Assembly: GCA_000372185.1 (NCBI GenBank)
Contig: AQUA01000002.1
Coordinates: 5,873 to 69,872 of the forward strand
Length of the DNA: 64,000 nt
Origin: an actinobacterium SCGC AAA278-O22
GTDB lineage: Bacteria; Actinomycetota; Actinomycetes; Nanopelagicales; Nanopelagicaceae
Reading direction: 5' to 3'
The notes beneath the pieces were generated by a model. The model did not search any database, had not been told where the DNA came from, and was given only the letters and a program-made list of their open reading frames with translations. Numbering within the stretch: the stretch's first letter is position 1; every line of letters begins with the position of its first letter. Below, in pieces: positions 44,414 to 50,234 of this stretch. Position numbers and translations under genes: made by a program.

Positions 44414-44486
44414 GCGTGCGTAGCTCAACGGATAGAGCATCTGACTACGGATCAGAAGGTTAGGGGTTCGAATCCCTTCGCGCGCA
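44414..44486 (+). tRNA. tRNA-Arg (ACG); its 3' half forms attL of the island
   Basis: GCGTGCGTAGCTCAACGGATAGAGCATCTGACTACGGATCAGAAGGTTAGGGGTTCGAATCCCTTCGCGCGCA: full cloverleaf, loop CTACGGA. Confidence 0.97.
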
Positions 44487-44488
44487 CA
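44445..44488 (+). repeat. attL direct repeat (3' half of tRNA-Arg)
   Basis: CTACGGATCAGAAGGTTAGGGGTTCGAATCCCTTCGCGCGCACA, identical to 50121-50164. Confidence 0.95.
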
Positions 44489-44579: not shown

Positions 44580-45335
44580 ATGCTTGTAAATGACTGGGTA
44601 AAAATCCTTTGGAGCGTCTTAAACGTTCGCCCTAAGACTCTTCAAAACTATAAACATCAATACGGTAAGTATTTAGAACCCGTAATGGGCTCTGTGGAAC
44701 TCAATGAAGTAGCGCCTGTAGAAATTCAAAGGTGTTTGCTTTCTCTACCTCCGCAGACCTCCAGGCACTGTTTGATGCTGGTTAAAACTATTTATCGCGA
44801 GGCAGCCCTATACGGGCACACATCTGCAAACCCAACTCTTGGTTTGAAAACTCCAGCAATCCAATTGTCGGAAAAGAAGTTTCTTACTTGGGAAGAAGTG
44901 GATTCCCGTTCTTGGGGGCGCTACGACGAGCAAATAAGATTTCTGGCACTTCACGGGCTACGTTGGAGTGAGGCTGCTGTAATCACAGAACACGACATCA
45001 GGGACGGCTTTGTCTTTATTTCGAAGTCGGTCTACGGTCCTTGTAAATCAAGGAGTAGTGTCAGAAAAGTTCCTTACCTAGGGCACTTTCAGCCATTGCC
45101 TGCCACCTATAAGCCAATGCAAAAATGTGCGAACTTACACGGGGTAACAGTGCACAGTTTTAGGCGGACATACGCCTATCTCCTGAAGACTCAGGGTGTA
45201 CACGTGACGACTGCTCAGAAGTTACTTGGTCACTCTGATCCGATGATGACACTAAAGGTCTACACATCAGTCCTAGACGATGAAATAGATTTAGCAGGGG
45301 AGCGACTATCTGCCCACATAAATCCCATAAAATAA
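44580..45335 (+). CDS. Tyrosine recombinase/phage-type integrase
   Basis: N-terminal core-binding-like region, LALHGLRWSEAAVI (box I Arg), VHSFRRTYAYLLKTQGVHVTTAQKLLGHSDPMMTLKVYTSV (HxxR...G-H...Y). Confidence 0.9.
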   Translation: MLVNDWVKILWSVLNVRPKTLQNYKHQYGKYLEPVMGSVELNEVAPVEIQRCLLSLPPQTSRHCLMLVKTIYREAALYGHTSANPTLGLKTPAIQLSEKKFLTWEEVDSRSWGRYDEQIRFLALHGLRWSEAAVITEHDIRDGFVFISKSVYGPCKSRSSVRKVPYLGHFQPLPATYKPMQKCANLHGVTVHSFRRTYAYLLKTQGVHVTTAQKLLGHSDPMMTLKVYTSVLDDEIDLAGERLSAHINPIK

Positions 45336-45861: not shown

Positions 45862-47325
45862 TTAGTCATCGGATCTATTCAACTTACTCAACTCTTCTAC
45901 CTTTGCCCAGATAGTTGGAAGGTCTATTTCTGTGGCGTCAATAGTTTCCGTGTACCCACCTTGTGGCATCTCGGAGTCTGACAAGAAAATCCCCAGGTTT
46001 TTTTCTTTCCTCAACCAATACAAAACTTTTTGTTCGACTTGGAAGGCATCATCTGCCGATTCAAAATCCTTACGTGAGTGCAGACTCCACCCAAACTTTT
46101 GATGCTCAGTTACCCGGTCTCTATTCCTTGAGCGCTTTGAGCCACCAATGCCAACTTTGTGCGATTGCAGATGTTGGTGTGTCATTAGATATATAAACCC
46201 TGGCCCTGTGTAATCGATTCCAATTAGTGCGCAGAACCTGCAACCACCCTGACCCTTCTTTATCGCACTGTATGTGGGGTAGACGATTCGTCCACACTTT
46301 AGACATTCACATTTCCATCTATCTAAAGCTTTCGAGTAAGGGTCTAATGGTTTGAGGTCAGCGTTATGCATAGTCTTTATGGCTTCCTCGATATCTACAA
46401 CTTTCCCTGCACAATATCCACAAGGACCATAGCCCTGCTGCATAGCGTTATAACTCTGGTACACAATCTTCCCACAAACGAGACATTCACATTTCCATTT
46501 TGAGTGACCACTTTTGAAAGAGACTAACGGTCTCAAATTCACACTTTCCATAAGCGCTATTGCTTTATCAGGTTCAATAACTAATCCCGCACAATATTTG
46601 CATCCACCGTTACCAATTCTAATACTGGCATAAGTTGGTGTAACAGTCTTTCCACAGGTTAGACACTCGCATTTCCATCTTGAATTCGATTTAATATATT
46701 GTTCTAAGGGTTTTAACCCCTTGCTAAGCATTATTGCCTCTGCCTCCTTGGCATCGACAAATTTCTTGGCACAATATTTGCAACCACCATTACCTTGTTG
46801 AATATCATTATATTTTGGAAATACTTCTCGCCCGCAAAGGAGGCATTTGGACTTCCACTTAGCTTTGCTACTTGTGTATTCAACGAGAGGAAGCAGGTTG
46901 GCTTCCTCCATTTTGATTAGTGCATTGTCGAGGTCGACAAATACCCCCGAACAGTAACCACATCCACCTTGGCCTTGTTTAATTGCAGAGAGTCGTGGTT
47001 TCACCACTCTGTCGCATAACAGACAGCGAGACTTCCAAGGAGTTTTCGAATCTTTATAAGGTTCCAAAGGTTGCAAGTTGGCATTCAACATAGTCTGAAC
47101 ACTTGAAGATTCAGAGAGTCTCTTCTTATCTGCGCTTATTTTGCGCCCGCAAGAGAAGCATCCACCTTGCCCTTGTTTCAAACTGTGATAGCTCGGGAAA
47201 ACTGTATTGCCACAAGCAAGATGAATACATTTCCATTTCGCGTGTGATTTACTGAATGCTTCCAACGGCTTGTACCCAGCATTCAGCATAAAGGATTCGG
47301 CTTCCTTTGCATTTATTCTCGCCAC
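45862..47325 (-). CDS. Protein with six tandem zinc-ribbon-like modules and a possible GIY-YIG-like C-terminal domain
   Basis: Six ~60-aa repeats of pattern (N/G)LxPLxxYxxxxxKWKCxCLxCGxxVxPxYxxIxxGxGGCxYCA, mostly CX2CX17CX2C. The C-terminus GFIYLMTHQHLQSHKVGIGGSKRSRNRDRVTEH...VEQKVLYWL resembles GIY-YIG/T5orf172-type domains. Confidence 0.75.
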   Translation of the reverse strand: MARINAKEAESFMLNAGYKPLEAFSKSHAKWKCIHLACGNTVFPSYHSLKQGQGGCFSCGRKISADKKRLSESSSVQTMLNANLQPLEPYKDSKTPWKSRCLLCDRVVKPRLSAIKQGQGGCGYCSGVFVDLDNALIKMEEANLLPLVEYTSSKAKWKSKCLLCGREVFPKYNDIQQGNGGCKYCAKKFVDAKEAEAIMLSKGLKPLEQYIKSNSRWKCECLTCGKTVTPTYASIRIGNGGCKYCAGLVIEPDKAIALMESVNLRPLVSFKSGHSKWKCECLVCGKIVYQSYNAMQQGYGPCGYCAGKVVDIEEAIKTMHNADLKPLDPYSKALDRWKCECLKCGRIVYPTYSAIKKGQGGCRFCALIGIDYTGPGFIYLMTHQHLQSHKVGIGGSKRSRNRDRVTEHQKFGWSLHSRKDFESADDAFQVEQKVLYWLRKEKNLGIFLSDSEMPQGGYTETIDATEIDLPTIWAKVEELSKLNRSDD

Positions 47326-47427
47326 ATTCCTATTGTGCCTTCAACCACCGACAATTAACAGGACGCATTCCACACACCGTGCACGGCTACCCTTGCTAAA
47401 TCTTTTGCAAAAGAGCAGACTCTTAAC

Positions 47428-47689
47428 TGTGAAAAACAAGGACTTTTCGACTTGGTTTATTGAGCGGGCTATGGGCGCAGGTTTATTTGCTCTAGGTGGA
47501 TCGGTCCTAGGGTTTTTTCTGGGCATTGAACTCTTAGGACTAATTCTGGGAGCAATTGTTGGTTGGCTGTGGACGGATTACAAAGTTAATCGTGGCGAAC
47601 TTCCACTTGGTGGCGAATCGCTCGAGCAACGTGATCGCCGCATTAATGAAGAAGAACGATGGCGTTACCCTGATGAAGAGAATAAATAA
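47428..47689 (+). CDS. Small membrane protein with glycine-rich TM hairpin
   Basis: Reading from a GTG near 47428: (M)KNKDFSTWFIERAMGAGLFALGGSVLGFFLGIELLGLILGAIVGWLWTDYKVNRGELPLGGESLEQRDRRINEEERWRYPDEENK. The ORF-track start at 47270 overlaps the divergent gene. Confidence 0.55.
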
Positions 47690-47716: not shown

Positions 47717-47956
47717 TTAAAGCCTGCGTTGTGGGTAAATGATTGACAGTATCCATCCTATAAGAGTAAAAATAACTCCAACGATAAAGAGAATTGCAGG
47801 TATTCCTCCAAATGCGCCTGGGGGTGTTTGCATAAAAAAGCGTTGAACCATTCCAAGTATTCCTAACGCGCTGAAAATGTAACCGATACGCCCTGCACGA
47901 TTGCGACGCTGGTAGCCATAAATGAGGCTGGAAATAAACCACTTTATTCCAATCAC
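47717..47956 (-). CDS. Small membrane protein
   Basis: 79 aa with two hydrophobic segments (IGYIFSALGILGMVQRFFM; IPAILFIVGVIFTLIGWILSIIY). Confidence 0.5.
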   Translation of the reverse strand: MIGIKWFISSLIYGYQRRNRAGRIGYIFSALGILGMVQRFFMQTPPGAFGGIPAILFIVGVIFTLIGWILSIIYPQRRL

Positions 47957-47999: not shown

Positions 48000-48929
48000 T
48001 TATTTCTTATACTCCTTCAATTTAAACTGAACCTCATAGAGAAATACATCAACTGCCTGGATCATATTCTGTGCGTAATAGAGTTTTTCATCGTACTTAC
48101 CAGCGACGATAATTCCCCTGACACTCTTCTCATTTAGATTTTCGGTTACCCAACCCATATATCTAAGAATTTGACCCACCGTGTCATCGCTCGTTTGATT
48201 ACGCTTTAATTCAATCACGACATATGACCCTGTTGACTTATCTTTTGCGAGGATATCAATTATCCCAATATCCGTTTTGTATTGCTGGCTCTTAAGAACC
48301 CCATCTTCATAGATCAAGTCGAGAGTCTTGCCGAATTCTGATTCATTCCAATTTTCAATAATGAATTCCTCAAGTTGTTTCTCCATATAAAAGAGACCTG
48401 AACTAACTACAGAACTTTCATCCTTAACTTCAAGATCAAGGGTGTTTCGATATGTATTTAAAATTTCTGATAGGTGTGTAGCAATTTCGCCTGCCTGATC
48501 CTTGCCGTTCGAATCTAAGAATTTGACAGATGAACCTGTAATCTCTGGCACGTAGGTTTTGAAGACATACGAGTCTCCGTAACGTGCCGCACCCTCAACA
48601 ACTTCGGAAATCAACTCATTATTTTCTTGGATTTCTCTACTCCAATTTAGGGGATATTGAGAGGTTTCGCTTATTCCGTATGAGAGGACTAAAATATTTT
48701 GCTCTTTGTAATATAGGTAAACAGGGAAATAACCATTGCTTGCCGAGATGCCTGGGGCTGTAAAACTGATCCAAGGTACTCTGGCTGCCATCCCCATACC
48801 GAATGAAACCTTCATTTTTAGGTTGTCGAATTCTCTTGGGTACTCCACAGTTTTCAAATTATTCTCAGCAGATTGAATGATGAATTTGTTGAGGAACTCT
48901 AAAGGATTCATAAACTTAGTATCCATCAA
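48000..48929 (-). CDS. MrcB_N (DUF3578)-like domain fused to NucS/DUF91-like PD-(D/E)XK nuclease domain; candidate modification-dependent restriction/defence nuclease
   Basis: N-term FGMGMAARVPWISFTAPGISASNGYFPVYLYYKEQNILVLSYGISET resembles MrcB_N. C-term MEKQLEEFIIENW...TDIGIIDILAKDKSTGSYVVIELKRNQTSDDTVGQILRYMGWVTENL resembles the NucS/DUF91 nuclease core (D...ELK...GQ). Confidence 0.75.
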   Translation of the reverse strand: MMDTKFMNPLEFLNKFIIQSAENNLKTVEYPREFDNLKMKVSFGMGMAARVPWISFTAPGISASNGYFPVYLYYKEQNILVLSYGISETSQYPLNWSREIQENNELISEVVEGAARYGDSYVFKTYVPEITGSSVKFLDSNGKDQAGEIATHLSEILNTYRNTLDLEVKDESSVVSSGLFYMEKQLEEFIIENWNESEFGKTLDLIYEDGVLKSQQYKTDIGIIDILAKDKSTGSYVVIELKRNQTSDDTVGQILRYMGWVTENLNEKSVRGIIVAGKYDEKLYYAQNMIQAVDVFLYEVQFKLKEYKK

Positions 48930-48975
48930 GAAAACAGGTTTGGATAGTGATTCGGTTCTGTTTAGAGTTTAAGTT

Positions 48976-49557
48976 TTACTTGACTAGCGCCCAGAGCATC
49001 AGTACTCCTACCCCTGAAACAAATGCGGCGTTTATCGAAGGTCCCGATACGTTGTATCCCTGTCTAAAAAAATTTACTATAGATGCAGAAATTAGATATG
49101 AATACTCTTCGAGTTTGTCATAGTCATCCGTTCCTGCTTCGATATTGAATTCCTCAGCAACAATATAGACCAGCAGATCCTTACCCTTGTATGAGGTGTA
49201 TCTGTCCAACTCTTCTGGGGAGGGAGGAATGTTTGAGCCCAGGCTTTGGAGAGTTACTCCCGACTTCAGGTGTTCAAAAATTCTTTGTCCAACTTTGGCT
49301 GCCGCATCGTCGATCTGCTGCAAACCTACTTGGTGCAAGGTGTCAAAAAATGGAGAGATCTCTTGGCGATTGCTTGGAAAGTCCGAGTTAAAGTCTTCAT
49401 CAATCTCATCTAAAAGTCGGTTCTTCAACTGAAGTAACTCAAGTTCTTCAAAGTACGCCCGATTGATATGAACTACTTCTTTTCCGAGCACATAACGAAA
49501 ACTATTCCTAAAATTGAGAATTGCTGTCTCAGTCTCTGGATTTAGGTGCAAAGCCAT
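48976..49557 (-). CDS. Uncharacterised protein with C-terminal hydrophobic segment, co-directional with and 46 bp upstream of the MrcB_N-NucS gene
   Basis: 193 aa, mostly helical/acidic, ending in GPSINAAFVSGVGVLMLWALVK. No family recognised. Confidence 0.6.
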   Translation of the reverse strand: MALHLNPETETAILNFRNSFRYVLGKEVVHINRAYFEELELLQLKNRLLDEIDEDFNSDFPSNRQEISPFFDTLHQVGLQQIDDAAAKVGQRIFEHLKSGVTLQSLGSNIPPSPEELDRYTSYKGKDLLVYIVAEEFNIEAGTDDYDKLEEYSYLISASIVNFFRQGYNVSGPSINAAFVSGVGVLMLWALVK

Positions 49558-49723: not shown

Positions 49724-49963
49724 ATGAAAAACTATAAAAATTATCTGATCGCAGTACTCTCAGGACTACTGATTCTCTCACTTTCAACACAACAGGCGCA
49801 GAGCGCTGCAAAAACTTACGACGCAGTTAAGTTAGCCGAGTATCAATCTTGCTTAAATGCCCAAAACAACTATGACATTGCCCTTATGCAAAGCCAAGGG
49901 GGTAATGGTTCTATGAACATTCTTGAAAACTTGAAGAACTGTCTTGCCTATAAGCCGTACTAA
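49724..49963 (+). CDS. Small secreted protein (79 aa)
   Basis: MKNYKNYLIAVLSGLLILSLSTQQAQSAAKT signal-peptide-like N-terminus with two later Cys. Confidence 0.5.
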   Translation: MKNYKNYLIAVLSGLLILSLSTQQAQSAAKTYDAVKLAEYQSCLNAQNNYDIALMQSQGGNGSMNILENLKNCLAYKPY

Positions 49964-50120: not shown

Positions 50121-50164
50121 CTACGGATCAGAAGGTTAGGGGTTCGAATCCCTTCGCGCGCACA
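50121..50164 (+). repeat. attR direct repeat (displaced tRNA-Arg 3' half)
   Basis: Identical to 44445-44488. Confidence 0.95.
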
Positions 50165-50168
50165 AGTT

Positions 50169-50198
50169 AAGCCTCGAGTGCCTTTCACACTCGGGGCT
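50169..50198 (+). terminator. Intrinsic terminator, probably the original tRNA-Arg terminator now beyond attR
   Basis: AAGCCTCGAGTG...CACTCGGGGCTT followed by TTCTTTTTT. Confidence 0.8.
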
Positions 50199-50234
50199 TT
50201 TCTTTTTTGAAGTATCTATCGGTATCGTTACCCA

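What the first reader, a model, noticed from the sequence alone, without database searches (positions are those of the whole stretch)
48000..49557. Candidate two-gene defence unit: MrcB_N/NucS-like fusion nuclease plus C-terminally hydrophobic partner, carried on an integrative island
Sequence: two co-directional genes 46 bp apart. The downstream protein (309 aa) pairs an MrcB_N/DUF3578-like N-terminus (GMGMAARVPWISF...GYFPVYLYYKEQNILVLSYG) with a NucS/DUF91-like PD-(D/E)XK core (IIDILAKDKSTGSYVVIELKRNQ...VGQILRYMGW). Its 193-aa partner matches nothing I recognise and ends in a single hydrophobic segment. Established: MrcB_N occurs in McrB-type modification-dependent restriction proteins, and the NucS C-terminal domain is a PD-(D/E)XK nuclease. 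Inference: a GTPase-less, single-chain modified-DNA nuclease with a possible membrane-linked partner, which would be an unusual type IV-like or abortive system.
Basis: partly seen in the sequence, partly recalled or inferred. Interest (0 to 1): 0.82.

Follow-up and report, generated by a model that had tools for sequence, protein, structure and literature searches.

The report
Solitary McrB-reader/NucS-nuclease fusion enzyme
A bacterial gene on a small mobile island joins a sensor for chemically modified DNA to a DNA-cutting domain in one protein; close relatives of it turn up on their own, without the neighbouring gene, in plankton and groundwater microbes from several phyla, so it is probably a stand-alone enzyme against modified foreign DNA rather than half of a two-gene system.

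Summary
Window 48000-48929 (-) encodes 309 aa: an E. coli McrB-type modified-cytosine reader fused to a NucS-type PD-(D/E)XK nuclease. Sequence, AlphaFold2/Foldseek, catalytic residues and reader pocket agree. There is no GTPase. The gene sits on a 5.7-kb element flanked by perfect 44-bp repeats of the tRNA-Arg 3' end; the site is unoccupied by it in all nine genus relatives examined.

The two-gene interpretation fails. The 193-aa neighbour has no detectable homologue in any library or genome set searched. Eight full-length relatives of the fusion (51-60% identity, 300 aa) occur in Prochlorococcus, SAR324, Chloroflexi, Neomarinimicrobiota, an alphaproteobacterium and a Woesearchaeota MAG, never with the neighbour. 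No gene other than the fusion recurs across these loci. In four of them the fusion is bracketed by direct repeats 1.0-4.3 kb apart, two beside tRNA genes, so the gene probably travels as cargo.

Best explanation: a solitary, single-chain, modification-dependent (type IV-like) endonuclease, inferred from anatomy, not shown biochemically. It is a new domain pairing in a known kind: reader-plus-nuclease fusions, and the NucS_C module (PADLOC PDC-S02) that is attached to several other N-terminal domains.

The parts
48000..48929 (-). Fusion nuclease, 309 aa: MrcB_N (McrB-type reader) + NucS_C (PD-(D/E)XK nuclease); TTG start, ATG possible at 48926
48540..48905 (-). MrcB_N / McrB DNA-binding-domain-like part, about residues 9-130; reader-pocket equivalents W53, F68 (Y in seven of eight homologues, N in one), L72, Y117
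   Evidence: 3ssc E 5e-19; Foldseek 3ssc E 4.4e-10, TM 0.79 by target length; column conservation
48015..48392 (-). NucS_C PD-(D/E)XK nuclease, about residues 180-305; D225, E240, K242, Q253, Y257
   Evidence: PF01939 E 3e-13; aligned to P. abyssi NucS D160, E174, K176, Q187, Y191; invariant in 30 aligned sequences
48204..48212 (-). E-L-K catalytic motif, residues 240-242
48976..49557 (-). Orphan 193-aa neighbour with one C-terminal hydrophobic segment (about residues 173-192); not a conserved partner
44414..44487 (+). tRNA-Arg (ACG), the integration target
44445..44488 (+). Left 44-bp attachment repeat (3' end of tRNA-Arg plus one base)
50121..50164 (+). Right 44-bp attachment repeat, identical to the left; its right flank lies directly beside the intact tRNA-Arg in relatives
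44580..45335 (+). Tyrosine recombinase / integrase of the element, 251 aa
   Evidence: PF00589 E 2e-9, phrog_1 E 3e-30
45862..47325 (-). Second nuclease-like cargo gene, 487 aa: tandem zinc-binding repeats (180-bp period) + C-terminal GIY-YIG/T5orf172-like region
   Evidence: phrog_681 endonuclease E 2.5e-42; T5orf172 sub-threshold E 0.006
47270..47689 (+). Small membrane-protein ORF (start uncertain) on the element
47717..47956 (-). Small membrane-protein ORF (79 aa) on the element, downstream of the fusion
49724..49963 (+). 79-aa ORF with a hydrophobic N-terminus (probably exported) on the element

Best explanation
The 309-aa protein is a solitary, single-chain, modification-dependent DNA endonuclease (type IV-like). 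The N-terminal McrB-type domain would flip out and read a modified cytosine in foreign DNA, and the fused NucS-type PD-(D/E)XK domain would cut nearby in the presence of a divalent metal, without NTP or translocation. Two molecules would probably have to meet for a double-strand cut. The gene is cargo of integrative elements and spreads horizontally among planktonic and groundwater microbes. Shown here: domain identities, intact catalytic and pocket residues, patchy distribution across phyla, placement on a mobile element, independence from the neighbour gene. Inferred: cleavage, modification specificity, dimeric cutting, anti-phage or anti-element role.
For: MrcB_N and NucS_C assigned by sequence and by fold (AlphaFold2 mean pLDDT 82; Foldseek: EcoMcrB DNA-binding domain bound to modified DNA E 4e-10, NucS/EndoMS E 7e-7). 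Catalytic D225/E240/K242/Q253/Y257 align with NucS D160/E174/K176/Q187/Y191 and are invariant in 30 aligned sequences. Pocket equivalents of McrB W49, Y64, L68, Y117 (numbers recalled from the McrB-N structures, checked here only by alignment) are W, F/Y, L, Y. Eight full-length homologues at 51-60% identity in distant taxa; the fusion is the only gene recurring among their loci. Patchy: 1 of 150 relatives, 2 of 41 Prochlorococcus-genus genomes. Direct repeats bracket the fusion in the window and four other loci. The same NucS_C family lies inside type I restriction-modification loci, beside a methyltransferase and beside an abortive-infection gene. All nine fusions match PADLOC candidate family PDC-S02 through the nuclease half. 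A one-chain MrcB_N-HNH fusion occurs in a prophage near its integrase and in an actinobacterial genome.
Against: No biochemical or phage data. The family was not found next to other defence genes in its own loci. McrB Y41 is M or Q here, so base specificity may differ. One fusion-bearing genome (G538) carries two C5-cytosine methyltransferases, a possible self-conflict if the target were 5mC in every context. Scarcity of C5 methyltransferases in fusion-bearing genomes (1 of 10) is not clearly below the genus baseline (18 of 91; 10 of 28 good genomes).
Confidence: 0.7

Rival explanations
1. Two-gene unit: the fusion nuclease acts with the 193-aa protein, which anchors it to the membrane or acts as an effector or immunity factor.
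For: Same strand, 46 bp apart, on the same element; C-terminal hydrophobic segment in the partner; no terminator-like site found between the two genes.
Against: Partner has no detectable homologue near any fusion homologue, in the genomes that carry them, or in any set searched; the fusion stands alone elsewhere.
Confidence: 0.08
2. DNA repair rather than defence: a NucS-like enzyme that removes mismatched, damaged or modified bases from the cell's own DNA.
For: The nuclease half is of the NucS/EndoMS type.
Against: The NucS N-terminal domain is replaced by an McrB reader; patchy horizontal distribution does not suit housekeeping repair; the other PDC-S02-type proteins lie in restriction loci.
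Confidence: 0.1
3. Weapon of the element: the nuclease protects the integrative element (and only incidentally the host) against competing elements or phages with modified DNA.
For: The gene lies on a small integrase-bearing element here and is bracketed by direct repeats in four other loci; an MrcB_N-HNH fusion sits near a prophage integrase.
Against: Cannot be separated from host defence by sequence; it differs in beneficiary, not in biochemistry.
Confidence: 0.12

Closest known systems
E. coli McrBC (EcoKMcrB N-terminal domain, DUF3578/PF12102)
   Same: Homologous reader domain with the modified-base pocket residues largely kept; cutting by a PD-(D/E)XK domain
   Different: No AAA+ GTPase, no McrC subunit, no translocation; the nuclease is NucS-type and in the same chain
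PADLOC candidate family PDC-S02 (NucS_C / DUF91-domain proteins)
   Same: C-terminal nuclease half is the same family (E 7e-43)
   Different: The models do not align to the N-terminal half; the other members examined carry other N-terminal regions (EVE, DUF7669, or regions Pfam does not name)
NucS / EndoMS mismatch endonuclease
   Same: PD-(D/E)XK core and catalytic residues
   Different: NucS N-terminal DNA-binding/dimerisation domain absent, replaced by an McrB reader; accessory, not core
Single-chain reader-nuclease fusion MDREs (SRA-HNH TagI, PMC6212794; wH fusions, PMC11037411; SBD/SRA-HNH, PMC7461809)
   Same: NTP-independent fusion of a modified-base reader with a nuclease, usually a solitary gene
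   Different: Different reader (MrcB_N) and different nuclease (NucS_C)
MrcB_N-HNH fusions (L035, and prophage L150)
   Same: GTPase-less MrcB_N plus nuclease in one chain, mobile context
   Different: HNH nuclease and a more distant MrcB_N subgroup
Tycheposons / tRNA-anchored plankton islands (PMC10872708 describes them in Methylophilaceae)
   Same: tRNA-end integration, tyrosine recombinase, cargo genes, plankton
   Different: Only 5.7 kb here; relation to named tycheposons not tested by recombinase phylogeny

Membership tests
McrBC type IV restriction | McrB N-terminal modified-base reader | tested here: met
McrBC type IV restriction | AAA+ GTPase in McrB | tested here: not met
   309 aa fully accounted for by reader, linker and nuclease; no P-loop family hit
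McrBC type IV restriction | Separate McrC subunit encoded next door | tested here: not met
NucS/EndoMS | PD-(D/E)XK C-terminal domain with NucS catalytic residues | tested here: met
NucS/EndoMS | NucS N-terminal domain | tested here: not met
   PF01939 and NucS sequences match only from about residue 203; N-terminal half is McrB-like
PADLOC PDC-S02 | Match to the family's models | tested here: inconclusive
   Strong (E 7e-43) but only over the nuclease half
Modification-dependent (type IV) restriction enzyme in the functional sense | Reader plus nuclease domain with intact catalytic residues | tested here: met
Modification-dependent (type IV) restriction enzyme in the functional sense | No cognate methyltransferase next door | tested here: met
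   None seen among the genes listed around the nine loci; Pfam run only on selected neighbours
Modification-dependent (type IV) restriction enzyme in the functional sense | Cuts modified, not unmodified, DNA | not testable with these tools
   needs purified protein
Integrative element at a tRNA gene | Flanking repeats of the tRNA 3' end, integrase, unoccupied site in relatives | tested here: met

The most novel reading that the evidence does not exclude
A family of single-gene, often integrase-less defence cassettes: one MrcB_N-NucS gene, bracketed by direct repeats and sometimes beside a tRNA gene, moving between planktonic phyla (and perhaps archaea) as a complete restriction system on its own, with a reader/nuclease pairing not described in the literature searched.
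Probability: 0.4. Interest if true: 0.65.

Novelty: new variant of a known kind. Interest (0 to 1): 0.5.

Why it matters
If it works as inferred, it is a very small NTP-independent enzyme that reads modified cytosine with the McrB domain, without the McrB motor. It also cautions against reading adjacent genes on a mobile element as a functional pair.

Tried and rejected
Single-protein scans of viral contigs with the fusion or its neighbour found no relatives, nor did the fusion against the phage records; plasmids hold only the NucS half with other N-termini, plus one E. coli record with a short MrcB_N match. Two N-terminal pattern designs in viral contigs gave nothing. One of these (alignment A3) used search-only artificial chimeras of EcoMcrB N-terminal sequence with real C-terminal homologues; they served only as a query and no result rests on them. 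AlphaFold2 of the 193-aa neighbour without homologues was useless (pLDDT 48), so its weak RexB hit (E 0.12) is not interpreted. The idea that fusion-bearing genomes avoid C5 methyltransferases was tested and is inconclusive. EcoBLMcrX was considered as a precedent, but the paper held names none of these domains. No paper in the library held both 'MrcB_N' and 'NucS'; subscription papers, REBASE and InterPro architectures could not be checked. The McrB-N structure paper (PMC3424535) is not held, so the McrB residue numbers are from memory plus alignment.

Full report
What is there. Two ORFs on the minus strand, 48976-49557 (193 aa) and 48000-48929 (309 aa), are 46 bp apart. Both have the codon usage of real genes. 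The 309-aa protein matches MrcB_N (PF12102, E 5e-8) over residues 16-92 and NucS_C (PF01939, E 3e-13) over 203-279. A single-sequence search of the PDB finds EcoMcrB's DNA-binding domain (3ssc, E 5e-19) and, weakly, NucS (2vld, E 1e-4); with a profile of 30 relatives both become firmer. AlphaFold2 gives mean pLDDT 82 with a flexible linker at 166-179. Foldseek returns the McrB domain bound to modified DNA (E 4e-10) and then NucS/EndoMS (E 7e-7).

Active sites. D225, E240, K242, Q253 and Y257 line up with P. abyssi NucS D160, E174, K176, Q187 and Y191 and are invariant in the 30 aligned sequences. The pattern fits a working modified-cytosine pocket with possibly shifted preference.

Relatives. 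Eight full-length relatives at 51-60% identity come from three Prochlorococcus genomes, SAR324, a Chloroflexi MAG, an alphaproteobacterial MAG, a Woesearchaeota MAG and a Neomarinimicrobiota MAG; a ninth is cut by a contig end. Several are MAGs, so single host assignments, above all the archaeal one, may be wrong. The gene is accessory: a full-length copy was found in none of the other relatives of the window's genome that were searched (only the window's own genome among 150) and in 2 of 41 genomes of the Prochlorococcus genus. Among all ORFs of at least 60 aa in those loci, only the fusion itself recurs.

The neighbour. The 193-aa protein has no hit in Pfam, PADLOC, NCBIfam or PHROGs beyond chance, none in plasmids or viral contigs (close relatives only), none in 150 relatives, 397 genomes of the phylum, or the nine fusion-bearing genomes, and none beside the fusions. 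It may still be co-transcribed here, but it is not part of a conserved unit.

Mobility. The window's element runs between perfect 44-bp repeats of the tRNA-Arg 3' end, 44445-44488 and 50121-50164, with a tyrosine recombinase inside. In all nine genus relatives examined the right flank lies contiguous with the repeat sequence, that is, the site is not occupied by this element; in eight of them ARAGORN reports the intact tRNA-Arg. A strong terminator-like hairpin at 50169-50199, in sequence that follows the tRNA directly in relatives, has been moved to the far end. Elsewhere the fusion is bracketed by direct repeats in L042 (41 bp, E 4e-9, one copy overlapping the tRNA-SeC 3' end; 1.4 kb apart), L044 (99 bp, 81%, E 1e-21, overlapping the 3' end of ychF; 2.3 kb), L046 (37 bp E 1e-8, and a 161-bp pair at 70% E 1.5e-14; 1.8 and 4.3 kb) and, weakly, L043 (30 bp, 83%, E 6e-4, next to tRNA-Val; 1.0 kb), with no hit in reversed-sequence controls. 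L041, L045, L047 and L048 show none. In L042 and L043 the fusion is the only sizeable ORF between the repeats.

The nuclease family. NucS_C proteins of this type carry other N-terminal regions: EVE (L069), DUF7669, and several that Pfam does not name. They occur inside type I RM loci, after a methyltransferase on a small plasmid and beside an abortive-infection gene. Conversely MrcB_N also occurs fused to HNH (L035, the HNH part read by eye; prophage L150). The window protein combines two modules that are both shuffled among defence-type proteins.

Mechanism. Reader-plus-nuclease single chains such as SRA-HNH TagI (PMC6212794) and winged-helix fusions (PMC11037411) are NTP-independent modification-dependent endonucleases, and most winged-helix fusions stand without a neighbouring methyltransferase. 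By analogy the fusion would bind a modified cytosine and cut nearby, probably as a dimer. Cleavage, specificity and defence are inferred. Self-conflict was probed through C5 methyltransferases: 1 of 10 fusion-bearing genomes has them against 18 of 91 in the genus, which is inconclusive.

Verdict. Observation confirmed; two-gene interpretation not supported; type IV-like enzyme likely, as a solitary mobile gene. New variant of a known kind.

Noticed in passing
45862-47325 (-): Second nuclease-like cargo gene on the same element: tandem zinc-binding repeats with a 180-bp period and a C-terminal GIY-YIG/T5orf172-like region (phrog_681 endonuclease, E 2.5e-42).
   Followed up: partly
L042:5636-7086: In SAR324 the fusion lies alone between direct repeats 1.4 kb apart, one overlapping the 3' end of tRNA-SeC; no integrase inside.
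   Followed up: yes
L044:456-2902: In a Prochlorococcus contig, 99-bp direct repeats (81%), one overlapping the 3' end of ychF, bracket the fusion and one hypothetical gene.
   Followed up: partly
L046:2580-7066: Related intergenic sequences recur at about 2580, 5169 and 6907 around the fusion, the last reaching into the start of a full-length EVE-domain gene; could be a tandem cassette array.
   Followed up: no
50169-50199: Strong terminator-like hairpin just after the right repeat; in relatives this sequence follows tRNA-Arg directly, so integration separated the tRNA from it.
   Followed up: partly
between 50207 and 50221: Four genus relatives carry about 3 kb (a lipoprotein-like gene and a 754-aa membrane protein) at this point that the window lacks; G020 also lacks it.
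   Followed up: partly
L150:1695-2717: Prophage MrcB_N-HNH fusion (340 aa) near the integrase: another GTPase-less McrB-reader nuclease.
   Followed up: partly
G027:C53:49-336: Weak, stop-interrupted match (2 TGA) to residues 47-145 of the fusion in a same-genus genome; possibly a decayed reader domain or chance.
   Followed up: no
G538:C2:141052-149259: Two C5-cytosine methyltransferase genes within about 8 kb in the fusion-bearing Chloroflexi genome: a possible self-conflict or paired systems.
   Followed up: no
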